Source: Zanthoxylum bungeanum (lineage: Eukaryota; Streptophyta; Magnoliopsida; Sapindales; Rutaceae). Taken from it: a DNA stretch of 64,000 nt. Of this stretch, positions 14,896-35,466 are shown piece by piece. The stretch is taken from contig SKCR01021131.1 in the NCBI GenBank assembly GCA_019454045.1, positions 1-64,000 of the forward strand. Reading direction: 5' to 3'. The first letter of the stretch is position 1, and every line of letters starts with the position of its first letter. Made by a program: the position numbers and the translations under genes. The notes below the pieces were generated by a model. That model did no database searches and had not been told where the DNA came from. It was given only the letters and a program-made list of their open reading frames with translations.

Positions 14896-15805
14896 AGACC
14901 GGCGTAAACACACGCGTATAACGCAAGCGCACATATCGTTCAAGTAGTATAAAAAGTATCGATCCCACGAGGACTTAATATCTAACTTATTAATTTTATG
15001 AGGTTAAATGATTACTAGTATCTAACAGGTTGTTTGATTGTTTTGAAATGGTGACAATTCTAAATTTAAAAACAAGTAAATAAAATTGTTCGAAAGTAGA
15101 TTTTAAGAAAATTCAATATTAAAAACTATATAGGGTTGTGATTTCTTCCAATATCATTTTAAAGATGAAGTGATTATCTTAAAGTTGGGTAATATATTGA
15201 TTTATTAACCTGGAACACTAAATTATGTGTAAGCCTCTGTCGATGGTCAGACACAAATACCCAATTTAACCCAATTGAACCATATGTCTATGTCAACCAA
15301 ATTATCTGGATTCATTAAGTTTAAGTTCCAATTATGGCTACCCCCGCCCGACATGTATATGTCTATCCTGTAAGGAAATCTATTAAAGGGTTATCAATCC
15401 TCAAGGAAAATCGTGGGCTATTAAGTCTAAGGCTGAAACCTAAAATCCCTATGTCTAGTTAATTTTAAGTTTCCCAGTTCAATTTTATTAATGGCCAGTT
15501 AATGAAAAAGCATAAGATTAAGACTCAATAAATAAATCTTTATATTACCCAAACCATAATCTAACCCCTTATAAACCGGTGATATTAAAAGTCATCACAA
15601 CCTCAGATAACTAATTTAGTTACAACACATAACTAGGGCTAGTAAAAACTTGAAAATAAAAGACATAAAGTAAAAATGCGGTAAAGTAAATACTGAAAGG
15701 TAAATTACAATAAAATAAAATGCTAAGGTAAAAGGAATTACTTTTACTACTACTAATTTAGATATCTCCCATAATATAATATATAAACTTATGATAACAT
15801 TACCA

Positions 15806-16011
15806 ACCAGCCATATAGGCGGTAACCTGATTGAGTCAAATTAAGTCCAACCAGCCATTAAGGCGGTAAAAAGATTTGTCAATGAACCTGCCATATAGGC
15901 GGTAAGAAAGTTTAATTACCAACCGACCAATCTGGCGGTATCCTTGATTAGTCAGGTTTAAACCAGATTAAAATGAATTACCAACCGACCAATTAAGCAG
16001 TATCCTTTTTA
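15806..16011 (-). repeat. Minisatellite inside the LTR (CCAGCCATATAGGCGGTA family)
   Basis: Five copies of a roughly 18-20 bp motif CCRRCCA-N3-GGCGGTA occur every 33-60 bp. Each is semi-palindromic (ACC...GGT). The same array recurs in every Gypsy LTR here, for example 16937-17140, 22560-22765, 23700-23905, 29650-29855 and 30790-31000, and in opposite orientation at 7490-7625, 32000-32140 and 50175-50365. Its role is unknown; it could be a protein-binding array or simply replication slippage. Confidence 0.7.
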
Positions 16012-17420
16012 CAAAAACTTGACCGGCGTAAACACACACGTATAACGCAAGCGCACGTATCGTTTAAGTAGTATAAAAATATCGATCCCAGGAGGACTTA
16101 ATTCCTACTGTTGTTATTAATTATTGAATCTATTTATTTACAAATATCTAATTGAGGGTGAAAAGAATGATTGCTTGATTGATTGGTTGATTGTAGATTT
16201 TCTAAATAAATAAATAAATAAAAAGACAAAAGAAAATACTAAGGAAAATAACAAAAGACACAAAGATCTAGGGTTGTGAATCATTCTAATATCTTTTAAA
16301 AGATGAAGTGATTATCTTATGTTTGTGTAATAAATCGGTTTACTAACTGGAACACGAAATTATGCGAAAACCTCTGTCGATGGTCAGACGCAAATACCCA
16401 GTTTAACCCAATTGAACCATATGTCTATGTCAACCAAATTATATGGATTCATTAAGTTTAAGTTCCAATTATGGCTACCCCCGCCCGACAGGTATATGTC
16501 TATCTTGTAAGGAAATCTATTAAAGGGTTATCTATCCTCAAGGAAGATCATGGTTATTAAGTCTAAGGCTGAAACCTAAAATCCCTATATCTAATTCATT
16601 TTAAGTTTCTCAGTTCAATTTTATTAATGGCCAGTTAATGAAAAGCATTAAGATTAAGACTCAATAAATAAATCTTTATATTACCCAAACTATAATCTAA
16701 CCCTTTATAAACCGGTGATATTAAAAGTCATCACAACCCCAGATAACTAATTTAGTTACAACACATAACTAGGGCTAGTAAAAACTTGAAAATAAAAGAC
16801 ATAAAGTAAAAATGCGGTAAAGTAAATACTGAAAGGTAAATTACAATAAAATAAAATGTTAAGGTAAAAGGAATTACTTTTACTACTACTAATTTAGATA
16901 TCTCCTATAATATAATATACAAACTTGTGATAACATTACCAACCAGCTATATAAGCGGTAACCTGATTGAGTCAAATTAAGTCCAACCAGCCATTAAGGC
17001 GGTAAAAAGATTTGTCCATGAACCTGCCATATAGGCGGTAAGAAAGTTTAATTACCAACCGACCAATCTGGCAGTATCTTTGATTAGTCAGGTTTAAACC
17101 AGATTAAAATGAATTATCAACCGACCAATATAGCGGTATCCTTTTTAAGTCAAATTTTAAATAGTGATATATTATATTTAAGGGAGATTAATTTAAATAG
17201 TAATAGTAAAAAAGTTACCTTTCACACTAGCAGGGGGAAGTTACCTCCTCATGGTAAATAGTAAAAACTGTAAAAATAAAGAAAGTAAATTACTATTATT
17301 ACAAAACGTAATTAAAATTAATTACAAAACTTAAATTAAAAGAAACTAGAGAGAGAAACTCTCTATTTACATCAATGAAGTGAGAGAGAATGATACCACT
17401 AAAATTGGAATTCCGCGCTC

Positions 17421-17428
17421 TATTTATA
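17421..17428 (-). promoter_or_regulatory. TATA box, composite LTR 1
   Basis: The minus strand reads TATAAATA just downstream (in transcription) of the ACGTGGC cluster and upstream of the R/U5-like part. Equivalent sites occur near 24186 in composite LTR 2 and 49884 in the solo LTR. Confidence 0.6.
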
Positions 17429-17565
17429 GGCGTCAGTAAGGGTAGCGCATCACGACGCCCAGCTCGCGTCGCGACGCCCGTTTTGTCAACGTGGCACGCT
17501 CTGGTTCGTCGACTGCAGATTCTAGATAAGGTTATAAGGTGACAGGTGGCAAGGTGGTTGGGGCT

Positions 17566-17875
17566 CAATTATTGTGACACGTGGCGGCTCGTGATTGGCT
17601 GATTCAGATTCTTATCCGCCACCTGTCAGATATGGATAAGATAGTCAATGATTGATGCTGACGTGGTGCTGACGTGGCGACACGTGGCAAAGTGACTGTC
17701 GGCACCATAGAAATAAGACACGTGGCACTTCCGGATTGGCTGATGATGACGTGGCGATGACGTGGCAGTTTGACTCGATCAACCTGGTGATGTGGATGAT
17801 GAAGTGATAATGACGTGGAGTGACACGTGGCCATGGCGATTGTCGGCACCGTAGGATGATGACACGTGGCACGAC
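17566..17875 (-). promoter_or_regulatory. ACGTGGC (G-box/ABRE-like) cluster in LTR U3, copy 1
   Basis: By my count about five CACGTG hexamers and six further ACGTGG cores lie within 310 bp, mixed with ATTGGCTGAT (CCAAT-box-like) repeats. They lie upstream of the LTR TATA box. In plants such cores bind bZIP and bHLH factors and occur in ABA- and light-responsive promoters; whether this LTR responds to either is inference. Confidence 0.6.
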
Positions 17876-18150
17876 GCACGTTAGCAAAGTCAAAATTTTC
17901 TAAGATTCTGATTTGTGGACCAGGGGCAAGTTTGGCGTCGCGACGCTGAAGGTCTTGGCGCGCGACGCGGAAAATTACCAAAATGCGATTTTTCCAATTT
18001 GTTTTGGTCCAAATTACCTCTAGAATATCCTGAAAATTTATTTATCTACAAAATAACAGAAAACACATCAAAATATTCACAAAACTCAATAAACTATACA
18101 AAATATTAAGTTAAATGAGTGGGAAATAGTGATAGATTTACCACTCATCA

Positions 18151-18168
18151 CACCCCAAACCTAACATT
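18151..18168 (-). other. Polypurine tract of internal region 1
   Basis: The minus strand reads GTTAGGTTTGGGGTG immediately before the LTR start TGATGAG. Copy 2 at 24941-24959 has one more G. This is where plus-strand DNA synthesis would be primed. Confidence 0.7.
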
Positions 18169-19112
18169 TTGCTAGTCCTCGAGCAAAACATAGAATAAAA
18201 TAACATAATTTAACTAAGCCACTTTCGTAGGGATCACAGTTGTATTTAGCGTATGCAACAAATATTTAAACCCCTAGGTGTCCATAGTGGACGAGTTGTA
18301 GTCTCGTGAGGGTTTACAGCAATGATACCCACAAACATTTTACAAAAGTAAAAAGGGAGTGAAACTAATGCACACAAAAGCAAAAAGACAAGCGAAAAGA
18401 GAATAAAGAAGTTAGTGACTAATCAGGTGAAACTTCTACTCCAAATTACTAGTTGTTTTGTTTCTTTCTAAATTACTGAATAAGTAAATTCTCCGATTAT
18501 ATTTACCATTCTCCATATACACAGCCAACATAAGATTAAACAACTCATTTTTACCCACAACAGTCACAAGTGTAGTTGATAAGAGAGTAATATTTTTGTC
18601 CTAAAGTTTTATCAGAATTCACACCTTTTTGTAGCAATGGAATAATTTTTCTCATTTTTCTGATTTTTTCTTTGATTTTTTTTATTTATTTATATACAAT
18701 ACTTTCCGTCTATGTAGCGAGTGTTGGGTCGGTGGCTCCCAAACCAGTTGGTTTTAGGGCACAATGTGTTAAAACACCCTTACAGACTTAATAACTCGGA
18801 TCGCAGATTTTTTTTTTGAGATGCTTCCTCCAATTAAACTAGAGCACTGAATATTACAAACTTTTCAATTTTAGCTCATGTCTGTATGTTACTATGCATG
18901 TTGATAATATCTCCTAACTGAGCATATGAAGATCCATTTTAGTCCGTATTATGGAGAATTCACAAATTAAATAATTTAAAAGGAAATAAACAGAAATTAA
19001 CTTGTTTCGTAATAGGTTTGAGATACGTCTAAGGAGTGGAAACTCCTTATTCAGCTATCTCTTACTAATTTCACCTTTTTAGTCAAAATAAAAACACAAA
19101 AACGCAAAATAT
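18169..19112 (-). other. Non-coding 3' part of internal region 1
   Basis: The stretch is 3' of the LOG-like sequence in element orientation. It closely matches 24960-25915 in copy 2. No ORF or motif is recognised. Confidence 0.5.
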
Positions 19113-19727
19113 TTTTGAAAGAATAGGGTCAACTTGTGGTTCATAGGCTAAGAGTTGGTCTATTAGATCTGGAGCAATTCTGGCAGTGAATAGGAGTTCT
19201 TTCATAGGTTTTGACACGAACCCAATTATCCGAGCATCATTAAGAAACACACAAAGAAAATCATAAAATCCTTCAACGTTGTACAGTCCAAGCGGTTTCT
19301 GGTGTATGTTCAGGTTCGCCCAAGATAATACTATAAAAATTTCCTCTAATGTGCCCAAGCCACCTGGCAAAGCGATAAAAGCATCAGCACGGTTGATCAT
19401 TTCCACTAGTCGCTCGGACATACCTGGCACAATAAGTTCCTCTCTGTTTGATGATCCAATAAGATTTGCCTCTGCCAATGGTTTTGGGATGATTCCCAAA
19501 ACGTGACTGCCTCCTTCTTGTACGGCCTTTTAAACGATTCCCATAAGTCCAAGATTGCATCCGCCATATATTAAGTGCATATTCCTTGCTGCTAAGACTC
19601 GACCCAATTCATGTGCTGCTTCTATGTATTGTGGCTTAACACCAACACTACTACCGCAAAACACACATATGTTTTCAACTCGTCTTCTTGAAGTGGCTTC
19701 AATTTTTTTATGTATTTCTTTCTCAAA
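19113..19727 (-). pseudogene. Captured LOG-like (cytokinin nucleotide phosphoribohydrolase) copy 1, broken
   Basis: The frame shows the LOG family core: an ADAFIALPGGLGTLEE motif (PGGxGTxxE, the nucleotide-binding/catalytic signature), then WANLNIHQKPLGLYNVEGFY. LOG enzymes release active cytokinin bases from riboside monophosphates in the cytosol or nucleus. It is in sense with the retrotransposon and has no introns, unlike typical plant LOG genes. An in-frame TAA at 19530-19532 replaces a serine codon present in copy 2. The 3' end is lost: relative to copy 2 about 270 bp are deleted at 19113, so the frame runs into unrelated sequence. Confidence 0.85.
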
Positions 19728-20163
19728 TCAGGATGCCTTCCAAAGTGCAATGATGAGTTGAATTTATAGAACCTGAAAAGGGTGTGTAATAATAGCACTA
19801 GTATTTTCCCTATGACGTTTGTTAGCTAAATAAAACAAAAGAAATCGTGAAATGTCAAAAAGTCTGGATCATGTCTACGAAAATAACAAAAGAAAAGCAA
19901 ATCAAAGCAATTATTAAGGCAATGAAATTTTGTACGCAATACGCCACTAGCTTAGTATAAATTCATAAGGATGTGTCTCAAGAATTTATTCTTTACTAAG
20001 CCATCACAAATGAATTAGCTCTCTTATTTCTGATTGCCAAACACCATTCCTTCTGTCTTAAAATGCTCCATTTGTGTTTTCCCTACAAAAATAACACACA
20101 AAATTAAAAACTCTACAACATGTATACACAAAATATAAAAATAGAAATTACAACAAATTGTAT
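19728..20163 (-). other. Spacer between the LOG-like and gag-like ORFs, copy 1
   Basis: No coding sequence is recognised. The corresponding part of copy 2 is 26805-27241. Confidence 0.5.
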
Positions 20164-20185
20164 GGGTTGCCTCCCTGCTAGCGCT
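20164..20185 (-). promoter_or_regulatory. Conserved block GCGCTAGCAGGGAGGCAACC, copy 1
   Basis: This block is found at the same place, after the polyprotein and before the accessory ORF, in array copy 2 (27242-27263) and in element C (35980-36001). It is followed by a T-rich stretch ending in TTTGTAG or TTTACAG, which resembles a 3' splice site. It may be part of a leader or splice region for the downstream ORF; this is inference. Confidence 0.45.
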
Positions 20186-20226
20186 AAATTTTTCGTCTTC
20201 AGCCAGACGTGAATGAAATCCATATG

Positions 20227-21168
20227 TCAAGGAGATTTCAGCGTCGTTTTGGATATCCGATTAAAGACAATCCCATGAGCATTGCTTTTGAAGGATCTCT
20301 TCCAACGGTAAAGTGGCAAAAAATATTTTGTCACATTCAGTGTTTGTGCCACCTTTTTAACCTTTGTTGCTCCAGTGGTTCCTGAAAAGAAAGAAAGAAA
20401 ATCAGGAGGTCTCGTATGGTGCTTGACTTTGAATGGAAGTTCCATTCTGTCAAGCTTCTGGGTGATATCTTTGATTTTTACTCCCCAAAACAGTGATGTT
20501 TTGCCTGAATGCTCTGGATCTTCAATTTGGTCTGAAAATTGCTCCTCAATTTGCTCTGTTTCTTGCTCCACCTTTTCTTCATAGATGTATTTTAAGATTT
20601 TTGCGTTCAGTTCTTCATCTATCATCTGTGAAAAACATGCTCCATAAGGGTCAACCTGAGGATGTAAAGATGTTCCTGACATTAGGTCTTCATCCTCTGA
20701 TACGAATGGAATGGATGGTTCAGGTAGATCTTCATTAAACATCATGGTAAAGCATGCTCCAAGATCTTCAATTTGAGGATTGAAAGTTTGATCCTCCGTT
20801 GTTAGTGCAGTTGGTACAAATAGATCAGCTTCATCCTCGTCAGAATCTGAATAATAAAAATCAAATTGAGACTTCGCTGGTTTGGGTTCCCGAACTGATA
20901 CCTCTTGTTGTTGATACTGCCCAGCCTCATCCTCTGCTAAGGTGTCATTATGGATCTCTGGGTACTCGAAGGCTTCATCAGTGTCATCTAAAAATGCTTC
21001 TTGAGGTATGAAGTTCTGGTTTTCTGTTAATTGTCTGATCTGATCTGTTATTCTCTGTATGGATTCTGTTTGACTCTGAATACTTTCAAGTTGATTCTGG
21101 AATGTTTCAAGCATTGTATCCAACTTTTCATCTCGTTTCTTGAACACATCTTTGAGCATGTCAATCAT
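20227..21168 (-). CDS. gag-derived acidic/coiled-coil ORF, copy 1 (313 codons)
   Basis: The frame opens at ATG 21168 (MIDMLKDVFKKRDEKLD), but upstream in-frame codons from about 21516 probably belong to the original gene and contain stops. Residues about 1-50 are heptad-like and glutamine-rich (coiled coil). The middle (about 70-215) is strongly acidic with a duplicated motif (GACFTMMFNEDL and GACFSQMIDEEL). The last ~80 residues are basic and aromatic (FSGTTGATKVKKVAQTL, YFLPLYRWKRSFK). I do not recognise the C-terminal domain. With the zinc knuckle upstream, it is most likely the C-terminal half of a rearranged gag. Confidence 0.5.
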   Translation of the reverse strand: MIDMLKDVFKKRDEKLDTMLETFQNQLESIQSQTESIQRITDQIRQLTENQNFIPQEAFLDDTDEAFEYPEIHNDTLAEDEAGQYQQQEVSVREPKPAKSQFDFYYSDSDEDEADLFVPTALTTEDQTFNPQIEDLGACFTMMFNEDLPEPSIPFVSEDEDLMSGTSLHPQVDPYGACFSQMIDEELNAKILKYIYEEKVEQETEQIEEQFSDQIEDPEHSGKTSLFWGVKIKDITQKLDRMELPFKVKHHTRPPDFLSFFSGTTGATKVKKVAQTLNVTKYFLPLYRWKRSFKSNAHGIVFNRISKTTLKSP

Positions 21169-21516
21169 CTGATCTTCTTCTGATTGTTGATGAAGATCAT
21201 TGTAGGTGGGTGGTGGATAAGATGGAAAATGTGGTTATGTGAAATGTGATGGCTAGTCATACTATGAAGGATCTTGATAGTTCTGCCACCCTGGATGGTA
21301 GTTGTATTCGCAATAATCTCTAGGGTGGTTACCATTACATATGTCACATCTCCCCATTGTGTCTTGTTAAGCAAATGTGGTATTGCTTGGTTCTGGCATC
21401 CAGTGATAATTGTAGGGCTGGACAACATGCCTCAGAAAATCGGACTGTTGCTCCCAGATTTGGGGTGTATCTTCTAGTAAAGCTCGAAATCTTTCAATCT
21501 CCCAATAATGTTCCAT
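21169..21516 (-). pseudogene. N-terminal gag part with zinc knuckle, copy 1 (stops)
   Basis: ATG at 21516 opens MEHYWEIERFRALL. A TAA interrupts the frame before the zinc-knuckle-like CDICNGNHPRDYC (C-x2-C-x3-H-x4-C). Three further stops lie between the knuckle and the coiled-coil ORF. The first TAA is shared with copy 2 at the same position, so the shared ancestor was already interrupted there, or translation began downstream. Confidence 0.6.
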
Positions 21517-21629
21517 TTTTTCAATCAACGGAAAACAAAATAAAGAAATAAAAATTACAGATAAAAATAAAGAAAATTAGATACAAGTAAATTAGATAGC
21601 TTCAAAATTAATAACTCAAGAAAAATAAG

Positions 21630-21647
21630 TCCCCGGCAAAGGCGCCA
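21630..21647 (-). other. Primer binding site, tRNA-Asp type, internal region 1
   Basis: The minus strand reads TGGCGCCTTTGCCGGGGA, one mismatch from the expected complement of the tRNA-Asp 3' end. It lies 6 nt inside the LTR end. Confidence 0.8.
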
Positions 21648-21653
21648 AAAACT

Positions 21654-24600
21654 TGACCGGCGTAAACACACGCGTATAATGCAAGCGCACGTATCGTTCA
21701 AGTAGTATAAAAAGTATCGATCCCACGAGGAATGAATATCTAAGCTATTAATTTTATGAGGTCAAATGATTACTAGTATCTAACAGGTTGTTTGATTGAT
21801 TTGAAATGGTGACAATTCTAAATTTAAAAACAAGTAAATAAAATTTTTCGAAAGTAGATTTTAAGAAAATTCAATATTAAAAACTATCTAGGGTTGTGAT
21901 TTCTTCCAATATCATTTTAAAGATGAAATAGTTATCTTAAAGTTGGGTAATATATTGATTTATTAACCTGGAACACTAAATTATGTGTAAGCATCTGTCG
22001 ATGGTCAGACACAAATACCCAGTTTAACCCAATTGAACCATATGTCTATGTCAACCAAATTATCTAGATTCATTAAGTTTAAGTTCCAATTATGGTTACC
22101 TCCGCCCGACACGTATATGTCTATCCTGTAAGGAAATCTATTAAGGGTTATCTATCCTCAAGGAAGATCGTGGGCTATTAAGTCTAAGGCTGAAACCTAA
22201 AATCCCTATGTCTAGTTCATTTTAAGTTTCCCAGTTCAATTTTATTAATGGCCAGTTAATGAAAAAACATTAAGATTAAGACTCAATAAATAAATCTTTA
22301 TATTACCCAAACTATAATCTAACCCCTTATAAACCGGTGATATTAAAAGTCATCACAACCCCAGATAACTAATTTAGTTACTACATATAACTAGGGCTGG
22401 TAAAAACTTGTTAAATAAAAGACATAAAGTAAAAATGCGGTAAAGTAAATACTGAAAGGTAAATTACAATATAATAAAATGCTAAGGTAAAAGGAATTAC
22501 TTTTACTACTACTAATTTAGATATCTCCCATAATATAATATATAAACTTGTGATAACATTACCAACCAGCCATATAGGTGGTAACCTGATTGAGTCAATT
22601 AAGTCCAACCAGCCATTAAGACGGTAAAAAGATTTGTCCATGAACCTGCCATATAGGCGGTAAGAAAGTTTAATTACCAACCGACCAATCTGGCGGTATC
22701 CTTGATTAGTCAGGTTTAAACCAGATTAAAATGAATTACCAACCGACCAATATAGCAGTATCCTTTTTACAAAAACTTGACCGGCGTAAACACACATGTA
22801 TAACGCAAGCGCACGTATCGTTCAAGTAGTATAAAAATATCGATCCCACGAGGACTTAATTCCTACTGTTGTTATTAATTATTGAATCTATTTATTTACA
22901 AATATCTAATTGAGGGTGAAGAGAATGATTGCTTGATTGATTTGGTTGATTGTAGATTTGCTAAATAAATAAATAAATAAAAAGACAAAAGAAAATACTA
23001 AGGAAAATAACAAAAGACACAAAGATATAGGGTTGTGAATCATTCTAATATCTTTTAAAAGATGAAGTGATTATCTTATGTTTGTGTAATAAATCGGTTT
23101 ACTAACCTGGAACACGAAATTATGCGAAAGCCTCTATCGATGGTCAGACGCAAATTCCCAGTTTAACCCAATTGAACCATATGTCTATGTCAACCAAATT
23201 ATCTAGATTCATTAAGTTTAAGTTCCAATTATGGCTGCCCCCGCCCGACAGGTATATGTCTATCTTGTAAGGAAATCTATTAAAGGATTATCTATCCTCA
23301 AGGAAGATCGTGGGCTATTAAGTCTAAGGCTGAAACCTAAAATCCCTATGTCTAGTTCATTTTAAGTTTCCCAGTTCAATTTTATTAATGGCCAGTTAAT
23401 GAAAAAGCATTAAGATTAAGACTCAATAAATAAATCTTTATATTACCCAAACTATAATCTAACCCCTTATAAACCGGTGATATTAAAAGTCATCACAACC
23501 CCAGATAACTAATTTAGTTACAACACATAACTAGGGCTAGTAAAAACTTGAAAATAAAAGACATAAAGTAAAAATGCGGTAAAGTAAATACTGAAAGGTA
23601 AATTACAATAAAATAAAATGTTAAGGTAAAAGGAATTACTTTTACTACTACTACTAATTTAGATATCTCCCATAATATAATATATAAACTTGTGATAACA
23701 TTACCAACCAGCCATATAGGCGGTAACCTGATTGAGTCAAATTAAGTCCAACCAGCCATTAAGGCGGTAAAAAGATTTGTCCAAGAACCTGCCATATAGG
23801 TGGTAAGAAAGTTTAATTACCAACCGACCAATCTGGCGGTATCTTTGATTAGTCAGGTTTAAACCAGATTAAAATGAATTATCAACCGACCAATATAGCG
23901 GTATCCTTTTTAAGTCAAATTTTAAATAGTGAATATATTCTATTTAAGGGAGATTAATCTAAATAGCAATAGTAAAAGAATTACCTTTCACCCTAGTAGG
24001 GGGAAATTACCTCATCGTGGTAAATAGTAAAAACTGTAAAAATAAAGAAAGTAAATTACTATTATTACAAAATGTAATTAAAATTAATTACAAAACTTAA
24101 ATTAAAAGAAACTAGAGAGAGAAACTCCCTCTTTACATCAAAGAAGTGAGAGAGAATGGTACCACTGAAACTGGAATTTCGCGCTCTATTTATAGGTGTC
24201 AGTAAGGGTCGCGCATCGCGACGCCCAGCTCGCGTCGCGACGCCCGTTTTGTCAACGTGGCACGCTCTGGTTCGTCGACTGCAGATTCTGGATAAGGTGA
24301 TAAGGTGACACGTGGCAAGGTGATTAGGGCTCAATTATTGTGACACGTGGCGTCTCGTGATTGGCTGATTCAGATTCTTATCCGCCACGTGTCAGATAGG
24401 GATAAGAGAGTCAATGATTGATGCTGACGTGGCGACACGTGGCAAAGTGACTGTCGGCACCATAAAATTACGACACGTGGCACTTCCTGATTGGCTGATG
24501 ATGACGTGGCAATTTGACTCGATCAGCCTGGTGATGTGGACGATGACGTGGAGTGACACGTGGCGACACATGGCGATGGCGATTGTCGGCACCGTTGGAT

Positions 24601-24940
24601 GATGACACGTGGCACGACGCCTGTTAGCAGATCGGCTGTGATGGTGACACGTGGCACGACGCACGTTAGCAAAGTCAAACTTTTCTCAGATTCTGATTTG
24701 TGGACCAAGCGCACGTTAGGCGTCGCGACGCTGAAGGTCTTGGCGCGCGACGCGGAATATTACCAAAATGCCATTTTTCCAATTTTCACTGTTTTGGTCT
24801 AAATTACCTCCAGAATGTCCTGAAACTTTATTTATCTACAAAATAACAGAAAACACATCAAAATATTCACAAAACTCAAGAAACTATACAAAATATTAAG
24901 TTAAATGAGTGGGAAATAATGATAGATTTACCACTCATCA
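21654..24940 (-). repeat. Composite LTR 2 (shared by both array units)
   Basis: The architecture matches composite LTR 1: full LTR 24940-22778 (2163 bp) fused to a 5'-truncated LTR ending at 21654. It serves as 5' LTR of internal region 1 and as 3' LTR of internal region 2, the classic signature of a recombined tandem element. Confidence 0.85.
24250..24665 (-). promoter_or_regulatory. ACGTGGC cluster in LTR U3, copy 2
   Basis: By my count about eight CACGTG hexamers plus four other ACGTGG cores lie in 415 bp upstream of the LTR TATA box (TATAAATA near 24186-24193 on the minus strand). This copy is better preserved than copy 1, where two sites have changed to CACCTG or CAGGTG. Confidence 0.6.
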
Positions 24941-24959
24941 CACCCCCAAACCTAACATT

Positions 24960-26126
24960 TTGCTAGTCCTCGAGCAAAACATAGAATAAAATAACATAAT
25001 TTAACTAAGCCATTTTCGTAGGGATCACGGTTGCATTTAGCGTATGCGACAAACCTTTAAACCCCTAGGTGTCCATAGTGGATGAGTTGTAGTCTCGTGA
25101 GGGTTTACAGCAATGATACCCACAAATATTTTACAAAAGTAAAAAGGTAGTGAAACTAATGCACACAAAAGCAAAAAGACAAGCGAAAAGAGAATAAAGA
25201 AGTTAGTGACTAATCAGGTGAAACTTCTACTCCAAGTTACTAGTTGTTTTGTTTCTTTCTAAATTACTGAATAAGTAAATTCTCTGATTATATTTACCAT
25301 TCTCCATATACACAGCCAACATAATATTAAACAACTCATTTTTGCCCACAACAGTCACAAGTGCAGTTGATAAGAGAGTAATATTTTTGTCCTAAAGTTT
25401 TATCAGAATTCACACTTTTTTGTAGCAATGGAATAATTTTTCTCATTTTTCTGATTTTTTCTTTGATTTTTTTTTTATTTATATACAATACCTTATGTCT
25501 ATGTAGCGAGTGTTGGGTCGGTGGCTCCCAAACCAGTCGGTTTTAGGGCACAAGGTGTTAAAACACCCTTACATACTTAATAACTCGGATCTCAGATTTT
25601 TTTTTTTACTCCATCACTTTTTGAGATGCTTCCTCTAATTAAACTAGAGCACTGAATATTACAAACTTTTCAATTTTAACTCATGTCTGTATGTTACTAT
25701 GCATGTTGATAATATCTGCTAACTGAGCATATGAAGATCTATTTTAGTCCGTATTATGGAGAATTCACAAATTAAATAATTTAAAAGGAAATAAACAGAA
25801 ATTAACTTGTTTCGAAATAGGTTTGAGATACGTATCAGGAGTGGAAACTCCTTACTCAGCTATCTCTTACTAATTTCACCTTTTTAGTCAAAATAAAAAC
25901 ACAAAAACGCAAAATATTTTTGTAATTTTTGAAAATTTTTCAAATTTTTTTTTATTTTTCGAAAAATTTTGGACTAAAAATAAAAACAACACACAAACTA
26001 AAAACAAGGTACTGATCAACTAATTCCTTCCTCCAAACCTAAATGAGACCTTGTCCCCAATGTCTTAAACAGTAGAAGAATAGTTTAGAAGATAGTATCT
26101 GGTTAGTTGAAATTCTACAGGAAAAG
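24960..26126 (-). other. Non-coding 3' part of internal region 2
   Basis: Matches copy 1 with an extra ~270 bp (about 25915-26185, which includes the true end of the LOG-like ORF) that copy 1 lost. Confidence 0.5.
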
Positions 26127-26804
26127 TTAAAGATTAAGATCCAGATTAATCCGACGCCTCTTACCACGATCGTCCTCAGACCAATTTATCTTTGAAAGGA
26201 TAGGGTCAACTTGTGGTTTCTAGGCTAAGAGTTGGTCTATTAGATCTGGAGCAGTTCTGGTAGTGAATATGAGTTCTTTCATAGGTTTTGACACGAACCC
26301 ATTTCTCCGAGCATCATTAAGAAACACACAAAGAAAATAATAAAATCCTTCAACGTTGTACAGTCCAAGCGGTTTCTGGTGTATGTTCAGGTTCGCCCAA
26401 GATAATACTATAAAAATTTCCGCCAATGTGCCCAAGCCACCTGGCAAAGCGATAAAAGCATCAGCACGGTTGATCATTTCCACTAGTCGCTCGGACATAC
26501 CTGGCACAATAAGTTCCTCTCTGTTTGATGATCCAATAAGATTTGCCTCTGCCAAGGGTTTTGGGATGATTCCCAAAACGTGACTACCTCCTTCTTGTAC
26601 GGCCTTTGAAACGATCCCCATAAGTCCAAGATTGCCTCCGCCATATATTAAGTGCATATTCCTTGCTGCTAAGACTCGACCCAATTCTTGTGCTGCTTCT
26701 ATGTATTGTGGCTTAACACCAACACTACCACCGCAAAACACACAGATGTTTTCAACTCGTCTTCTTGAAGTGGCTTCAATTTTTTTATGTATTTCTTTCT
26801 CAAA
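26127..26804 (-). pseudogene. Captured LOG-like (cytokinin nucleotide phosphoribohydrolase) copy 2, almost full length
   Basis: A single intronless frame of about 225 codons opens after a TGA at 26805-26807 and shows the LOG layout: ENICVFCGGSVGVKP at the N-terminus, LIYGGGNLGLMGIVSKAVQ (the glycine-rich GGGSxGLMG-type motif), HVLGIIPKPL, then ADAFIALPGGLGT with the motif-final glutamate kept. The length is close to the ~210-220 residues usual for plant LOG proteins. There is no ATG start; translation would need a fused upstream start. One nonsense codon (26220-26222, where copy 1 encodes tyrosine) precedes the last 31 codons, which end in LDLNL. The lack of introns points to capture from a spliced mRNA. 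It could also be a domesticated paralogue, but its place between gag-like ORF and polypurine tract in two elements argues for capture. Confidence 0.85.
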
Positions 26805-27241
26805 TCAGGATGCCTTCCAAAGTGCAATGATGAGTTGAATTTATAGAACCTAAAAAGGGTGAGTAATAATAGCACTAGTATCTTCCATAGGACGTTTGTT
26901 AGCTAAATAAAACAAAAGAAATCATGAAATGTCAAAACGTCTGGATCATGTATATGAAAATAACAAAAGAAAAGCAAATCAAAGCAATTATTAAGGCAAC
27001 GAAATTGTGTATGCAATAAGCCACTAGCTTAGTATAAATTCATAAGGATGTGTCTCAAGAATTCATTCTTTACTCAGCCATCACAAATGAATTAGCTCTT
27101 TTCTTTCTGATTGCCAAACACCATTCCTTCTGTCTTAAAATGCTCCGTTTGTGATTTTCCCTACAAAAATAACACACAAAATTAAAAACTCTACAACATG
27201 TATACACAAAATATAAAAATAGAAATTACAACAAATTGTAT
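26805..27241 (-). other. Spacer between the LOG-like and gag-like ORFs, copy 2
   Basis: Equivalent to 19728-20163. No coding content seen. Confidence 0.5.
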
Positions 27242-27263
27242 GGGTTGCCTCCCTGCTAGCGCT
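27242..27263 (-). promoter_or_regulatory. Conserved block GCGCTAGCAGGGAGGCAACC, copy 2
   Basis: Same block and context as at 20164 and 35980. Confidence 0.45.
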
Positions 27264-27304
27264 AAATTTTGCGCCTTCAGCCAGACGTGAATGAAATCCA
27301 TCTG

Positions 27305-28602
27305 TCAAGGAGGTTTTAGCGTCGTTTTGGATATCCGATTAAAGGCAATCCCATGAGCGTTGCTTTTGAAGGGTCTTTTCCAACGGTAAAGTGGCAAAAA
27401 ATATTTTGTCACATTCAGTGCTTGTGCCACCTTTTTAACCTTTGTTGCTCCAGTGGTTCCTGAAAAGAAAGAAAGAAAATCAGGAGGTCTCGTATGGTGC
27501 TTGACTTTGAATGGAAGTTCCATTCTGTCAAGCTTCTGGGTGATATCTTTGATTTGTACTCCCCAAAACAATGATGTTTCGCCTGAATGTTATGGATTTT
27601 CAATTTGGTCTGACAATTGCTCCTCAATTTGCTCTGTTTCTTGCTCCACCTTTTCTTCACAGATGTATTTTAGGATTTTCGCGTTCAGTTCTTCATCTAT
27701 TAACTGGGAAAAACATGCTTCATAAGTGTCAACCTGAGGATGTAAAGATGTTTATGACATTAGGTCTTCATCCTCTGATACGAATGGAATGGATGGTTCA
27801 GGTAGATCTTCATCAAACATCATGGTAAAACATGGTCCAAGATCTTCATTTTGAGGATTGGAAGTTTGATCCTCCGTTGTTAGTGCAGTTGGTACAAATA
27901 GCTCAGCTTCATCCTCGTCAGAATCTGAATAATAAAAATCAAATTGAGACTTCGCTGGTTTGGGTTCCCGAACTGATACCTCTGGTTGTTGATACTGCTC
28001 AGCCTCCTCCTCTGCTAAGGTGTCATTGTGGATCTCTGGGTACTCGAAGGCTTCATCAGTGTCATCTAAAAATGCTTCTTGAGGTATGAAGTTCTGGTTT
28101 TCTGTTAATTGTCTGATCTGATATGTTATTCTCTGTATGGATTCTGTTTGACTCTGAATACTTTCGAGTTGATTCTGGAATGTTTCAAGCATTGTATCCA
28201 ACTTTTCATCTCGTTTCTTGAACACATCTTTGAGCATGTCAATCATCTGATCTTCTTCTGATTGTTCTGATTGTTGATGAAGATCATTATAGGTGGGTGG
28301 TGGATAAGATGGAAAATGTGGTTCTGTGAAATGTGATGGCTCGTCATACCATGAAGGATCTGATAGTTCTGCCACCCTAGATGGTAGTTGTATTCGCAAT
28401 AATCTCTAGGGTGGTTACCATTACATATGTCACATCTCCTCATTGCGTCTTGTTAAGAAAATGTGGTATTGCTTGGTTCTGGCATCCAGTGATAATTGTT
28501 GGGCTGGACAACAGGCCTCAGAAAATCGGACTGTTGCTCCCAGATTTGGGGTGTATCTTCTAGTAAAGCTCGAAATCTTTCAATCTCCCAATAATGTTCC
28601 AT
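27305..28602 (-). pseudogene. gag-derived ORF, copy 2 (stops and frameshift)
   Basis: This corresponds to the copy 1 region 20227-21516. ATG at 28602, the shared TAA, the zinc knuckle CDICNGNHPRDYC near 28400-28440 and the coiled-coil/acidic region (27752-28399) are all present. A one-base loss near 28362 shifts the frame after the knuckle. Nonsense codons lie near 27750 and 27590 where copy 1 reads glycine and glutamate. A six-residue EQSEQS duplication lies near 28265. The C-terminal domain is open only as a separate frame (27305-27571). Confidence 0.7.
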
Positions 28603-28715
28603 TTTTTCAATCAACTGAAAACAAAATAAAGAAATAAAAATTACAGATAAAAATAAAGAAAATAAGATACAAACAAATTAGATAGCTTCAAAATTAATAA
28701 CTCAAGAAAAATAAG

Positions 28716-28733
28716 TCCCCGACAACGGCGCCA
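28716..28733 (-). other. Primer binding site, tRNA-Asp type, internal region 2
   Basis: The minus strand reads TGGCGCCGTTGTCGGGGA, one mismatch from the expected tRNA-Asp complement, 6 nt inside the LTR. Confidence 0.8.
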
Positions 28734-28739
28734 AAAACT

Positions 28740-31059
28740 TGACCGGCGTAAACACATGCGTATAATGCAAGCGCACGTATCGTTCAAGTAGTATAAAAAG
28801 TATCGATCCCACGAGGAATGAATATCTAAGCTATTAATTTTATGAGGTCAAATGATTACTAGTATCTAACAGGTTGTTTGATTGATTTGAAATTGTGACA
28901 ATTCTAAATTTAAAAACAAGTAAATAAAATTGTTCGAAAGTAGATTTTAAGAAAATTCAATATTAAAAACTATATAGGGTTGTGATTTCTTCCAATATCA
29001 TTTTAAAGATGAAGTGGTTATCTTAAAGTTGGGTAATATATTGATTTTTTAACCTGGAACATTAAATTATGTGTAACCCTTTGCCGATGGTCAGACACAA
29101 ATACCTAGTTTAACCCAATTGAACCATATATCTATGTCAACCAAATTATCTGGATTCATTAAGTTTAAGTTCCAATTATGGCTACCTCCACCCGACAGGT
29201 ATATGTCTATCCTGTAAGGAAATCTATTAAAGGGTTATCTATCCTCAAGGAAGATCGTGGGCTATTAAGTCTAAGGATGAAACCTAAAATCCCTATGTCT
29301 AGTTCATTTTAAGTTTCCCAGTTCAATTTTATTAATGGCCAGTTAATGAAAAAGCATTAAGATTAAGACTCAATAAATAAATCTTTATATTACCCAAACT
29401 ATAATCTAACCCCTTATAAACCGGTGATATTAAAAGTCATCACAACCCCAGATAACTAATTTAGTTACTACACATAACTAGGGCTAGTAAAAACTTGAAA
29501 ATAAAAGACATAAAATAAAAATGCGGTAAAGTAAATACTGAAAGGTAAATTACAATAAAATAAAATGTTAAGGTAAAAGGAATTACTTTTACTACTACTA
29601 CTAATTTAGATATCTCCCATAATATAATATATAAACTTGTGATAACATTACCAACCAGCCATATAGGTGGTAACCTGATTGAATCAAATTAAGTCCAACC
29701 AGCCATTAAGGCGGTAAAAAGATTTGTCCATGAACCTGCCATATAGGCTGTAAGAAAGTTTAATTACCAACCGACCGATCTGGCGGTATCCTTGATTAGT
29801 CAGGTTTAAACCAGATTAAAATGAATTACCAACCGACCAATATAGCGGTATCCTTTTTACAAAAACTTGACCGGCGTAAACATACACGTATAACGCAAGC
29901 GCACATATCGTTCAAGTAGTATAAAAATATTGATCCCACGATGACTTAATTCATACTGTTGTTATTAATTATTGAATATATTTATTTACAAATATCTAAT
30001 TCAGGGTGAAGAGAATGATTGCTTGATTGATTTGGTTGATTGTAGATTTGCTAAATAAATAAATAAATAAAAAGACAAAAGAAAATACTAAGGAAAATAA
30101 CAAAAGACACAAAGATATAAGGTTGTGAATCATTCTAATATCTTTTAAAAGATGAAGTGATTATCTTATGTTTGTGTAATAAATCGGATTACTAACCTGG
30201 AACACGAAATTATGCGAAAGCCTCTGTCGATGGTCAGACGCAAATTCCCAGTTTAACCCAATTGAACCATATGTCTATGTCAACCAAATTATCTGGATTC
30301 ATTAAGTTTAAGTTCCAATTATGGCTACCCCCGCCCGACAGGTTTATGTCTATCCTATAAGGAAATCTATTAAAGGGTTATCTATCCTCAAGGAAGATCG
30401 TGGGCTATTAAGTCTAAGGCTGAAACCTAAAATCCCTATGTCTAGTTCATTTTAAGTTTCCCAGTTCAATTTTATTAATGGCCAGTTAATGAAAAAATAT
30501 TAAGATTAAGACTCAAAAAATAAATCTTTATATTACCCAAACTATAATCTAACCCCTTATAAACCGGTGATATTAAAAGTCATCACAACCCTAGATAACT
30601 AATTTAGTTATAACACATAATTAGGGCTAGTAAAAACTTGAAAATAAAAGACATAAAGTAAAAATGTGGTAAAGTAAATACTGAAAGGTAAATTACAATA
30701 AAATAAAATGTTAAGGTAAAAGGAATTACTATTACTACTACTAATTTAGATATCTCCAATAATATAATATATAAACTTGTGATAACATTACCAAAACAGC
30801 CATATAGGCGGTAACCTGATTGAGTCAAATTAAGTCCAACCAGCCATTAAGGCGGTAAAAAGATTTGTCCATGAACCTGCCATATAGGCAGTAAGAAAGT
30901 TTAATTACCAACCAACCAATCTGGCGGTATCTTTGATTAGTCAGGTTTAAATCAGATTAAAATGAATTATCAACCGACCAATATAGCGGTATCCTTTTTA
31001 AGTCAAATTTTAAATAGTGAATATATTATATTTAAGAGAGATTAATCTAAATAGCAATA
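28740..31059 (-). repeat. Composite LTR 3, left part (5' LTR of the array)
   Basis: The truncated LTR copy (28740 to about 29860) and the fused full LTR (from 29868) are as in the other two. It stops at 31059 inside AATCTAAATAGCAATA, where element C begins. The missing 5' portion of this LTR is found beyond element C at 36594-37342. Confidence 0.85.
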
Positions 31060-33158
31060 TGATGAGCGGAAAATATATCAATATTTACCGCCCCTTTAAC
31101 TTAATATTTTATTTAGTTTCTCGGGTTTAATGAACTTTTTGATGTGTTTTAGTTTATTTTGCAGATAAAATAATATCGGGTCTCAATGAAATCATTTAGG
31201 ATGAAATATGGGTCAAATAATGGCAATTATTGGACTTGATATTTTAATTTTGGAGATTGGAAACTTGAAAGGGCGTTTTGACGAAGTGCAGTTTTGGAAA
31301 TTCCAATTTTGCGCATCTGTCGTATGTTGGGTATAACTTTTTACTCAGATATCGGATTGAGCTGATTCAAGTTCCAGATTAAAGAAGACTCAAAGATCTA
31401 CAACCTTTAAAGACAAAATAATTTCGAATTCTGAAGATTTCATGCCCGAAATTGATGAACTATCCAGAAGTGTGTGGTGTGTAATTATTAAAAGTCATTA
31501 TCAATCATTTTCAAAGTAAAATATAATTAATAAAAATTATCAAATCACCACCCAACAAGATAAGCAATTAGTGGAGCAATTATGGATTTGGTGGAGTAAT
31601 TAGTGGAGAAATTAATAATGGATTTGGTGGAGAATTTGATGGATGATTTGATGGTGGCAAAATTTTGCCTATAAATACCAAGCCATTTCATTTGTAAAAT
31701 TCATACTTTCTTCTTTGAAATTCTTAATGAATAAATAAGAAGATTGTATCTAGTTTAGTTATTTACAGTTTTTAGTAATTAATTTTCACTTTCGCACTTT
31801 CTTTTCTCTACTTTTCAGTTTTTACTTTCCACAATTTACTTTTACGCACAACATTTTCTTTCTTTACTTTTGCAGTTTTATTTTTCAAGCAATGATGAGG
31901 TAATTCTCCTTTGCTGGGGTGAAAGGTAAAGCTTTTATTATTACTATTTAGATTAATCTCCCTTAATTATAATATAAAAACTATTTAAAACCTGACTTAA
32001 AAAGGGATACCGCTATATTGGTCGGTTGGGTAATTATTATAAATTGGTTTTAACCTGACTTAATATGGATACCGCCTGGTTGGTCGGTTGGTAATTAATT
32101 ATTAATTTGACTTAATCAGGATACCGCCTATATGGCTGGTTAGTAATTATCACGCAAAGTTAATATATTATATTAAGGGAGATATCTAAAATAGTAGTAA
32201 TAAAAGTTGATCCTCTAACCCCAGCATTCTCTTTTATTATACTTTTACTTTATTTAATTTCAACAATTTACTTTTCAGTAATTTATTTTTAATTTTTTTT
32301 ACTTTTTACTTTTTACTTTTTACTTTTTACTTTATTTACTTTTCAGCAATTTACTTTTCAGTATTTAATTTTCAGCAATTTACTTTATGTCTTTTATTTT
32401 ATTTAAGTTTTTACTACCCGTAAATATGTGTCGTAACTAAGCCAGTTATCTGGGGTTGTGATGAATTTCAATATCACTATTTTATAAGGGTTAGATTATA
32501 GGTTGGGTAATTTAAAGATTTATTTATTGAGTCTTAATCTTAATGCTTTTTATTAACTGGCCATTAATAAAATTGATTAGGTAAACTTAAAATGAACTAG
32601 ACATAGAGATTTTAAGTTTAAGACCTTAGACTCAATAGCCCACGATCTTCCTTGAGGATAGATAAACCTTTAATAGATTTCCTTACAGGATAGGAATATA
32701 CCTGTCGGGCGGGGGTAGCCATAATTGGAACTCAAACTTAATGAATCTAGGTAATTTGGTTGACATAGACATATGGTTCAATTGGATTATACTAGGTATT
32801 TGTAATTGACCATCGGAAGATGCTTTTACATAATTTAGTGTTCCAGGTTAATAAATCAATATTTTACCCAACTATAAGATAACCACTTCATCTTTTAAAT
32901 AATATTGAATAAATCACAACCCTGGATAGTTTTTATAATTTGAATTTCCACCAACCTACTTTCGAACCATTTTATTTACTTGTTTTTAAATTTAGAATCG
33001 TCACCATTTTAAATCAATCAATCAACTTGTTAGATATTAGTAATCATTTGACCTCATAAAATTAATAGTTTAGATATTAAGTCCTCGTGGGATCGATATT
33101 TTTATACTACTTGAACGATACGTGCGCTTGCGTTATACGTGTGTGTTTACGCCGGTCA
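31060..33158 (+). repeat. 5' LTR of element C (2099 bp)
   Basis: Starts TGATGAGCGGAAAATATATC and ends TTACGCCGGTCA. The first ~80 bp and the R/U5 half match the other Gypsy LTRs, but the U3 (31200-31660) is unrelated to the ACGTGGC-rich type. It carries instead direct repeats of GGATTTGGTGGAG-type units at 31565-31655. A TTTTTACT microsatellite lies at about 32295-32340. Confidence 0.85.
31670..31677 (+). promoter_or_regulatory. TATA box of element C LTR promoter
   Basis: TATAAATA at the U3/R position equivalent to the other LTRs. Confidence 0.6.
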
Positions 33159-33164
33159 AGTTTT

Positions 33165-33182
33165 TGGCGCCGTTGCTGGGGA
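33165..33182 (+). other. Primer binding site, tRNA-Asp type (element C)
   Basis: TGGCGCCGTTGCTGGGGA, one mismatch from the expected complement of the tRNA-Asp 3' end, 6 nt after the LTR. Confidence 0.85.
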
Positions 33183-33288
33183 CTTATTTATCTTTCACTA
33201 TTAATTTAGAGGTTAGATACGTTACTTTATCTAATTTCTTTTTACTTATTGTCGTTGTTTTCTTGTGTTTCAGGTTCTCAGAAACTAC

Positions 33289-34660
33289 ATGAGACGAACC
33301 AGAAGCTTTGAACTCCGATCGCTTGACCCAGAAATTGAAAGAACCATCAGACAGTTGAGAAGGGAAAGGCGAGAAGGCCAAGAAGCTTTAGTCAACATGG
33401 AACCTGAACCTTTGAACGTTGCACCACCATTCCCATTCGAGACAGAACCATTCCGATGGTTGACAGACTCATTTCTTGTATTGTATTTCCTCCCTTACCA
33501 GCAAATACATGTGACATCAAAACATGCATTCAGATGATTCAGCAGTCAGTTCAATTTGGGGGGAATGCAACTGAAGATCCTAATGCCCACATCAGTAACT
33601 TCCTGGAAGTTTGCGGAACTTTTAATTACAACCGAGAAGCTGAAGAAGCAATGAGACTGCGTGTTTTTCCATACTCCTTGAAGGACAGAGCTAAAGCTTG
33701 GCTACATTCACTACCACCAGGTTCTATCACAACTTGGAACACTTTAGCCACCAAATTTCTTGCAAAGTACTTTCCACCAGCCAGAACCGGAAAGCTGAGG
33801 AATGACATCACATCCTTTGTACAACAAGATTCAGAATCCCTCTGCGAAGCTTGGGAAAGGTATAAAGATTTACTCCAAAAATGTCCTCACCATGAGATTC
33901 CAAAATGGCTTCAAGTCCAAACATTCTATAATGGGCTTTCTGGAATAATGAGAACCACAATCGATGCTGCGCGCTGGAGAAGCTTTAATGGCAAAAGGAG
34001 AAGATCAAGCCTGGGACCTAATCGAAGAAATGGCCAACAACAATTCCTTGTGGCCAACAGAAAGAAGCATGATAAAAAGAATTGCAGGAATTTATGAAGT
34101 TGGAGCAAACACAGCAGTGAATACCAGGCTGGATCAGATATGCAAATGTCTAGAAACACTTAGCACGCAAGTTGTGAACATCGCTGAACCACAAGTTCAC
34201 CATATGGAGGAGCACCAGAACCAAACCAACATGAAGAGACGGTGAATTATATCAACAATTTCAACAGACAGGGGAACAATCCATATTCCAACACCTATAA
34301 CCCAGGGTGGAGGAATCATCCTAATTTATCATGGAGCAACAATTCAGGCCAACAGCAAACTATCCACCACCTGGATTCCACCAGCAGAACAAAGGCCAAG
34401 AGCATGAAAAAGAACCAGAATGAAAGAATGGTTTGCAGAGATGTTCAAAAAGCAAGAAGCAAAAACGATGCTATGTTTCAAGCTCAAACAACATAATTCA
34501 AAGTCAATCTGCTTCTATTAAACACTGGAGAATCAAATGGGACAACTGGCAAATGCTCAGAGTTACAGACTGCCAGGTACCTTTCCTAGCAACACAGAGC
34601 CAAATCCAAGAAACATGGGGAAGGAGCAATGTCATGCCATCATGTTAAAAAGCGGGGTAC
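33289..34660 (+). pseudogene. gag of Gypsy element C (frameshifted)
   Basis: ATG 33289 opens MRRTRSFELRSLDPEIERTI. The retrotrans_gag domain is in the next frame (33456-33970): NREAEEAMRLRVFPYSLKD, AWLHSLPPGSITTW, FLAKYF, CEAWERYKDLLQKCPHHEIP and VQTFYNGL. Further frame changes occur near 33450, 33970 and 34240. The order and content match element A's gag, and this copy is slightly better preserved. Confidence 0.8.
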
Positions 34661-34999
34661 TGAAATCAACAAAGATGTGGAGTCAATTCAACTGCTGAGG
34701 AAGTTCCAAAGAAACAAAGCAACAGATGGAGGAAAAAGAACAGATCACTCCACCTCCACCTTTTCCTCAACGTCTTCAGAAGAACAAATTGGACAAACAG
34801 TTTTCTCGTTCTTGGAAATCTTCAAAAAGCTGCATATCAACATTCCATTTGCAGAAGCGTTGGAACAAATGCCCACCTATGCCAAATTCATGAAAGATAT
34901 TCTTTCACGAAAGCGGAGATTGGGAGATTACGAGACAGTAGCATTAACAGAAGAATGCAGCGCTATCATTCAGAGGAAACTTCCCCGAAGTTGAAAGAT

Positions 35000-35466
35000 C
35001 CTGGCAGTTTCACTGTTCCTTGCGTCATAGGAGAACATAACTTTGGTAAGGCTTTATGTGATTTAGGTGCTAGCTAGTGTTAACTTGATGCCTTTTTCTA
35101 TTTTCAGGAAATTACAGATGGAGAACAATGCCAACTTCAGTCTCACTGCAACTTGCTGATAGAACGCTCGTATTTCCAAGAGGCGTAGTTGAGGATGTGC
35201 TGGTCAAGGTTGACAAATTCATTTTCCCAGCAGATTTTATTATCCTTGATATGGAGGAAGACGCAGACGTGCCAATCATCCTTGGGAGACCATTCTTGGC
35301 TACAGGTCGAACCATTATTGATGTACAAAAAGGAGAACTAACCATGAGGGTACAAGACCAAGAAGTAACATTCAATGTTTTCAAAGCCATGAATTTCCTA
35401 GATGATGAAAAGAATGAGGAATGTTTCAGACTTGATGTGATACACCAGTACCGTTCAGAACTCTGA
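35000..35466 (+). pseudogene. Protease of element C (disrupted)
   Basis: The CDLGAS active-site motif near 35055-35075 is followed by a four-base direct duplication (GCTAGCTA) that shifts the frame. The remainder (35128-35466) is open and contains [14 protein letters not shown] and [13 protein letters not shown], the normal end of the plant Gypsy protease. Confidence 0.75.

What the first reader, a model, noticed from the sequence alone, without database searches (positions are those of the whole stretch)
18151..28740. A LONELY GUY-like cytokinin-activation gene carried inside a non-autonomous Gypsy retrotransposon
Both internal regions of the array carry, in sense and at the same place before the polypurine tract, an intronless LOG-like frame with the PGGxGTxxE signature. 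Copy 2 (26127-26804) spans almost the whole protein; the LTRs on either side have primer site and polypurine tract, so the gene moved as part of the element. Plant LOG genes normally have several introns, so capture from spliced RNA is the simplest reading. The ORF is linked to LTRs with strong-looking promoters, so an element copy elsewhere in this genome could make a LOG-like protein or small RNAs against host LOG genes.
Basis: partly seen in the sequence, partly recalled or inferred. Interest (0 to 1): 0.9.

Follow-up and report, generated by a model that had tools for sequence, protein, structure and literature searches.

The report
Retrotransposons carrying a cytokinin-enzyme gene
A large plant genome is full of jumping genes that carry their own copy of a plant hormone-activating enzyme gene, and that gene bears the marks of having been kept working by selection while the elements multiplied, although the two copies in this stretch are themselves broken.

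Summary
Both internal regions of an LTR-int-LTR-int-LTR array (minus strand) carry an intronless LONELY GUY (LOG) frame. Both window copies are broken: ATT stands where relatives start, and each has an in-frame stop. LOG lies inside elements that jumped: of 20 other copies, 17 have primer site and polypurine tract on either side; of 7 with both ends in reach, 6 have 5-bp target duplications. A 24-base tag of the family occurs 16,297 times. In 20 tagged places picked without looking at LOG, 18 hold LOG DNA and 3 are fully open; pN/pS is 0.265, against 0.91 and 1.85 in shifted frames. LOG is an old extra ORF of the family, not a recent capture: 2 of 20 copies also have pol, and element-type LOGs form one group apart from canonical plant LOGs. 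LOG-domain ORFs in gypsy elements of Citrus and Populus are in print. Added here: scale, selection, a basic plus LxLxL tail, and a neighbouring carlavirus-like nucleic-acid-binding ORF.

The parts
14896..18150 (-). LTR 1 (3' end of array)
   Evidence: starts TGATGAGTGG; 3.8% from LTR 2
18151..21653 (-). Internal region 1
   Evidence: primer-site-like TGGCGCCTTTGCCGGGG behind LTR 2
19110..19703 (-). LOG copy 1, broken (ATT start, in-frame TAA, 3' deletion)
20230..21516 (-). ORF with CDICNGNHPRDYC zinc-knuckle-like stretch where other copies have gag-pol, copy 1
21654..24940 (-). LTR 2 (shared by both units), with internal 1.14-kb tandem duplication
24941..28739 (-). Internal region 2
24941..24953 (-). 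Polypurine tract AGGTTTGGGGGTG before LTR 2
26130..26780 (-). LOG copy 2; open 26220-26741; ATT start, in-frame TAG near the end
27308..28602 (-). Zinc-knuckle-like ORF, copy 2 (broken)
28717..28733 (-). Primer binding site TGGCGCCGTTGTCGGGG, similar to the tRNA-Asp 3' end (tRNA sequence recalled)
28740..37342 (-). LTR 3 (5' end of array), split by a nested insert at about 31060-36594
31060..36594 (+). Nested piece of the same family: LTR part, gag 33235-34321, bits of pol, NABP-like ORF 36077-36487; no LOG detected

Best explanation
The LOG frame is a long-established 3' extra gene of a very abundant Ty3/gypsy LTR retrotransposon family, probably of the Athila lineage. Shown: it lies between primer site and polypurine tract in copies that jumped to independent sites; it occurs in copies with RT-RNaseH-integrase, in copies with gag alone, and in window-type copies with neither; its coding sequence shows purifying selection over the family's history; element-type LOGs are one group, apart from canonical plant LOGs. 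Inferred: one old acquisition from a spliced plant LOG mRNA; the protein is an active cytokinin-nucleotide phosphoribohydrolase (catalytic motif kept) that raises active cytokinin in the cell where the element is expressed, so that meristem or germ-line precursor cells divide more or stay competent and more new copies are inherited. Its basic plus LxLxL tail suggests a nuclear step, perhaps through TOPLESS-type corepressors. The window copies are decayed passengers of a gag-pol-less derivative.
For: Family. Inside jumping elements: PBS and PPT on either side in 17 of 20 loci, TSD in 6 of 7. Copies with pol: RVT_1 2.9e-30, RT_RNaseH 2.1e-36, rve 1.9e-17 in L028, the same domains in L011. Abundance: 16,297 exact tags, 0 in the control. 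Selection in the 18 LOG-bearing of 20 tagged loci: pN/pS 0.265, bootstrap 0.215-0.305, shifted sense frames 0.91 and 1.85. Yardsticks in the 20 loci chosen by LOG score: LOG 0.136 (19 compared), gag 0.197 (9), RT part 0.106 and RH-INT 0.119 (one comparison each), NABP 0.369 (12), zinc-knuckle ORF 0.555 (7). Among 8 gag-pol-less copies LOG gives 0.171 over its first 195 codons. One group: (99/96). Introns in 3 of 3 host LOG genes fetched.
Against: Most tagged copies are dead: 17 of 20 have no complete open LOG, and both window copies are broken. No expression or enzyme data. Copies of different kinds have near-identical LOGs, so segments are probably exchanged and selection seen in gag-pol-less copies may be inherited from coding-complete kin. 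The tag was itself chosen from LOG-bearing copies, so 18 of 20 is not the share of LOG among all gypsy elements. Copies were ranked by protein score, which favours open frames. The Athila label was not tested with an RT tree. That relatives in other plants lie in elements rests on literature for Citrus and Populus, not on DNA read here.
Confidence: 0.72

Rival explanations
1. The LOG was captured recently by a non-autonomous element of this host from a host LOG mRNA and is a passenger without function.
For: Intronless frame; host LOG genes have introns; the window copies are broken.
Against: Presence in copies with pol, pN/pS 0.265 with shifted-frame controls, a separate group shared with other plants, element-type proteins up to 88% identical in other, unnamed sources.
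Confidence: 0.04
2. The element LOG keeps the fold but works mainly as a nuclear regulator: its basic and LxLxL tail brings TOPLESS-type corepressors or tethers element nucleoprotein, and cytokinin activation is secondary or lost.
For: Tail: basic cluster in 78 of 85 and C-terminal LxLxL-like end in 70 of 85 element-type proteins, against 1 of 117 and 0 of 117 canonical LOGs; the tail is disordered in the model of P0001.
Against: Catalytic-site residues (R98, E121 of P0005 numbering) are nearly invariant and invariant, which argues for activity; no binding data; LxLxL is a short motif; 4 of 20 own-genome LOGs have lost the tail by frameshift.
Confidence: 0.2
3. LOG and the NABP-like ORF are retained only because they ride with gag-pol in the same RNA (linkage), with no benefit to the element.
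For: Extra ORFs of plant elements are often highly divergent and of doubtful function (Neumann 2019 passages).
Against: Linkage does not give low pN/pS; the linked zinc-knuckle ORF is at 0.555 while LOG is constrained.
Confidence: 0.05
4. The element LOG came from a bacterium rather than from a plant mRNA, which would also explain the lack of introns.
For: Identity of element-type P0005 to the 80 best bacterial LOGs (39-48%) is like that to three canonical plant LOGs (43-44%); motif PGGLGT.
Against: The 12 bacterial rows fall on one side of a branch with 100/100, apart from element plus canonical plant LOGs; the root is not known.
Confidence: 0.1

Closest known systems
Extra ORF with YgdH/LOG domain in Ty3/gypsy elements of Citrus and Populus (Alvarado-Marchena et al. 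2022, PMC9289625, passages read; Steinbauerova et al. 2011 not held, its abstract recalled as naming two Athila-like elements similar to LOGL4)
   Same: LOG-family domain in Ty3/gypsy LTR retrotransposons
   Different: Here: another host genome, 16,297 tagged copies, presence in copies without gag-pol, measured purifying selection, tail motif, neighbouring NABP-like ORF. The Populus case is reported there only with a filter switched off
Canonical plant LOG (cytokinin riboside 5'-monophosphate phosphoribohydrolase), e.g. At2g37210
   Same: Fold, PGGxGTxxE site, catalytic R and E
   Different: No introns, PGGLGT instead of PGGYGT as a rule, basic plus LxLxL tail, separate branch
Orchid gypsy elements with an AlkB-type RNA demethylase ORF (PMC9289625)
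   Same: A plant gypsy lineage that kept an acquired cellular enzyme
   Different: Different enzyme and lineage; its activity was shown in vitro (abstract seen), here not tested
Carlavirus cysteine-rich / nucleic-acid-binding protein (Pfam PF01623, PF05515)
   Same: The neighbouring ORF of the same elements scores above the curated cut-offs in 3 of 3 copies tested
   Different: Encoded by an LTR retrotransposon, typically 182 aa; the likeness rests on Pfam alone: no named virus is among the 120 of 277 relatives listed

Membership tests
LOG family (PF03641, type-I LOG) | Profile match above cut-off | tested here: met
   115.2 bits vs 27 for window copy 2, 98.8 for copy 1
LOG family (PF03641, type-I LOG) | PGGxGTxxE motif and catalytic Arg/Glu | tested here: met
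   Invariant or nearly invariant in alignments A1 and A2; window copy 2 reads PGGLGTLAE
LOG family (PF03641, type-I LOG) | Rossmann-like LOG fold | tested here: met
   Model of relative P0001 matches 2a33, E 1.8e-20; the window copy itself was not folded
LOG family (PF03641, type-I LOG) | Phosphoribohydrolase activity on cytokinin nucleotides | not testable with these tools
   needs an assay
Canonical plant LOG clade | Falls among canonical plant LOGs in a tree | tested here: not met
   Separate group 99/96; canonical 98/96
Ty3/gypsy LTR retrotransposon | LTRs, PBS, PPT, TSD | tested here: met
Ty3/gypsy LTR retrotransposon | gag, RT, RNase H, integrase in gypsy order in some copies | tested here: met
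   RT, RNase H, integrase in L028 and L011, gag in L010; absent from the window's two LOG-bearing units
Athila lineage | RT-RH-INT phylogeny places it in Athila | not tested
   no reference set fetched; tRNA-Asp-like PBS and 3' sense extra ORF fit, but the tRNA sequence is recalled
Athila lineage | No archaeal-type second RNase H (which marks Tat) | tested here: inconclusive
   no second RNase H family listed for the L028 and L011 pieces; absence from a Pfam listing only
Carlavirus-type NABP (neighbouring ORF) | Profile match above cut-off | tested here: met
   Carla_C4 22.9-31.6 bits vs 20.9; Viral_NABP 24.1-30.3 vs 23 in L022, L025, L028
Carlavirus-type NABP (neighbouring ORF) | Silencing suppression or RNA binding | not testable with these tools
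   needs an assay

The most novel reading that the evidence does not exclude
The family carries a two-gene host-manipulation cassette: a carlavirus-like nucleic-acid-binding protein that blunts RNA silencing, and a LOG enzyme with a nuclear, corepressor-recruiting tail that shifts the cell toward a high-cytokinin, dividing state. Together they let the element multiply in meristem or germ-line precursor cells, and the cassette has been kept across plant orders.
Probability: 0.25. Interest if true: 0.92.

Novelty: new variant of a known kind. Interest (0 to 1): 0.68.

Why it matters
Few plant retrotransposons are known to keep an enzyme of host metabolism (my knowledge plus PMC9289625). Here the gene shows coding constraint similar to gag in a family with thousands of copies, which makes a testable case for an element that changes its host cell's hormone state to aid its own spread. 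It also warns that proteins annotated as LOGL10 or LOG-like in plant genomes can be of the element type (P0041 Populus).

Tried and rejected
Recent capture and bacterial origin were considered and found unlikely. A pattern for PGGYGT[LM]EE meant to find host LOG genes found 5 places, all element copies; a second pattern found 27 canonical sites. Viral contigs gave no plant element with LOG: none, only distant relatives (21 loci, best 40% identity). Papers: (Pfam names and numbers of the NABP families) listed 2 unrelated papers; (carlavirus, retrotransposon, Athila, at least two) had 352 papers, 15 listed, and the one holding all three words, PMC5967125, is about viral proteases (passages). Searches for LOG in LTR elements listed only PMC9289625 as relevant (3 papers; 1 each); one search found none; one search had 17 papers, 15 listed, seen as a listing only.

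Limits: the 20 loci L009-L028 come from a list ranked by LOG protein score (150 scored of 63,701 candidates), so their open frames are not a fair sample. The 20 loci L109-L128 are + strand places on the first contigs of the list, out of 16,297; they need an exact 24-mer, which favours younger copies, and the 24-mer was chosen because 17 of the 20 LOG-ranked loci hold it, which favours LOG-bearing subfamilies. Two of these 20 (L113, L120) had no LOG hit and L128 only the last 25 codons; they are counted as misses. L118 is open with ATG and stop but was skipped by the fixed motifs of my script, so the 22 copies there lack it. In the tail count, 29 of 114 element-type rows without a recognisable C-terminal box were dropped, the 114 are defined only as hits without PGGYGT and include at least one bacterial-looking row (P0117). 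A regular expression for catalytic residues was written wrongly and gave 0 of 114; the statement on those residues rests. Tree rows are my selection from the listed hits. Absence of pol in the nine gag-bearing copies rests on ORF listing and on the room between LTR and LOG; Pfam was run on two of the nine (L009, no gag-pol family; L010, gag).
Full report
What is there. The window lies in a 3.956-Gb assembly of 51,709 contigs (G000, contig C18239), a plant by its contents; the species was not identified. On the minus strand it holds LTR-internal-LTR-internal-LTR. LTRs start TGATGAGTGG, are about 3.3 kb long and contain a 1.14-kb tandem duplication. Behind the LTRs stands a primer-site-like TGGCGCCGTTGTCGGGG (tRNA-Asp-like, from recall) and before them a polypurine tract. 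LTR 1 and LTR 2 differ at 3.8% of sites and the internal regions at 3.5%. LTR 3 is split by a nested piece of the same family (31060-36594, + strand).

The LOG frame. Both internal regions carry a LOG frame in sense. Neither is intact: both have ATT in place of ATG, copy 2 has a TAG near its end, copy 1 a TAA inside and a deletion behind it. A 217-residue relative (P0001) folds as LOG (mean pLDDT 84.5, residues 203-217 below 50), best match At2g37210.

It is an element gene. The own-genome search scored 150 places, all below E 1e-100, of 63,701 first-look candidates; 145 of the 150 have no stop in the match. Of 20 of these fetched with 10 kb, 17 have a primer site and a polypurine tract, allowing a few mismatches, on either side of LOG, and of the 7 tested with both outer LTR ends in reach 6 have a perfect 5-bp target duplication; L019 has none. 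Three kinds occur: with pol (L011, L028), with gag but no room for pol (9 loci), and window type with neither (8 loci); L022 is truncated and unclassified. So LOG belongs to the family, copies with pol included, and the window elements lack gag-pol but carry it.

Scale and selection. A 24-mer next to the polypurine tract occurs 8,119 + 8,178 times, 0 in the reversed control. Of 20 such places fetched without looking at LOG, 18 hold LOG DNA (one only its last 25 codons) and 3 are open from ATG to the normal stop. If 3 of 20 held for all tagged copies, about 2,400 open LOG frames would exist; the exact binomial range is 3-38%, 520-6,200. Pooled pN/pS against one open copy is 0.265 (bootstrap over loci 0.215-0.305); the two shifted sense frames give 0.91 and 1.85, the antisense frames 1.24, 2.66 and 0.37, the low one being the frame whose codons share third positions with the sense frame; without the two most divergent loci the ratio is 0.233. 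In the score-ranked set LOG (0.136, 13 of 19 open) is like gag (0.197, 0 of 9 open) and the pol pieces (0.106 and 0.119, one comparison each) and unlike the zinc-knuckle ORF (0.555, 0 of 7 open); NABP lies between (0.369, 2 of 12 open). Pairwise Nei-Gojobori on 22 copies gives dN/dS 0.211. Within the 8 gag-pol-less copies the ratio is 0.171, but their LOGs are nearest to those of gag-bearing copies in 7 of 8 cases and in the eighth too, so segments are probably exchanged.

Origin. Canonical LOG exons occur at 27 sites; 3 of 3 fetched show exons cut by introns, while the element frame is continuous. In a tree of 54 proteins that I selected, 26 element-type rows are one group (99/96), 16 canonical plant LOGs another (98/96) and 12 bacterial ones a third (100/100); the quick tree of 96 rows agrees, except that one row I had labelled canonical by its motif (P0068) falls with the elements. 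Named element-type rows in the trees are from Xanthoceras (P0066) and Diplodiscus (P0056); the Populus protein P0041 is not in the trees, but P0037, 97% identical to it, is. An old single acquisition from spliced plant LOG RNA is the simplest reading; it is inferred, and the root of the tree is not known.

Tail. Of 85 element-type proteins with a readable C-terminus, 78 have a basic cluster, 70 an LxLxL-like end and 60 a strict LxLxL; of 117 canonical LOGs 1, 0 and 1; of 76 bacterial ones 0, 0 and 2. LxLxL is a form of the EAR motif; papers on pathogen effectors that meet TOPLESS through it appear in the listing (titles and starts of abstracts seen). In this genome 4 of 20 ranked copies have lost the tail by a frameshift, while the 3 open tagged copies keep it. 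Its function here is inferred.

Neighbouring ORF. Between pol and LOG lies a 182-residue ORF that matches Carla_C4 and Viral_NABP above cut-off in 3 of 3 copies tested. Relatives number 277 in the protein collection (120 listed); the named ones are from Xanthoceras, Populus, Acer and Rhamnella, and no named virus is listed. Two contig lengths, 8,723 and 4,511, appear both in the LOG list (P0073, P0060) and in the NABP list (P0270, P0264), each with a source in common, which suggests linkage in other plants but does not prove it. In the window a shortened NABP lies at 36077-36487 (+), lacking the zinc-finger part.

Known and new. PMC9289625 (passages) reports the YgdH domain, otherwise found in LOG proteins, in gypsy consensus sequences of two Citrus species, and of Populus with a filter off, and cites Steinbauerova et al. 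2011, which is not held. Neumann et al. 2019 (passages) scored only extra ORFs of 250 codons or more, so a 217-residue LOG would not have been counted there. A sunflower study (passages) describes other extra ORFs in Athila elements. So the kind is known.

Verdict. Observation confirmed; interpretation partly supported. The window copies themselves cannot make the full protein as it stands in relatives, but other copies in the same genome have complete frames.

Noticed in passing
window 36077-36487 (+); L022:4150-4695, L025, L028: Carlavirus-like nucleic-acid-binding ORF in the same retrotransposon family, typically 182 aa in relatives from several plants; the window copy lacks its zinc-finger part.
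   Followed up: partly
window 8601-13605 (+): Gag and pol of a related element, 84-85% identical to family members, without a detectable LOG or NABP copy in the window behind it.
   Followed up: partly
window 20230-21516 and 27308-28602 (-): ORF with a zinc-knuckle-like CDICNGNHPRDYC stretch where other copies have gag-pol; no convincing Pfam family; weak constraint (pN/pS 0.555).
   Followed up: partly
window 58552-59268 (+): Open stretch matching CDK5RAP3 (PF05600, E 3.1e-14), possibly an exon of a host gene.
   Followed up: no
L010, L012, L019, L025: Four of 20 LOG copies share a similar frameshifted C-terminus, which removes the basic/LxLxL tail.
   Followed up: no
LTRs, e.g. window 21654-24940: About 1.14-kb tandem duplication inside the LTRs of the array, variable among other copies.
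   Followed up: no
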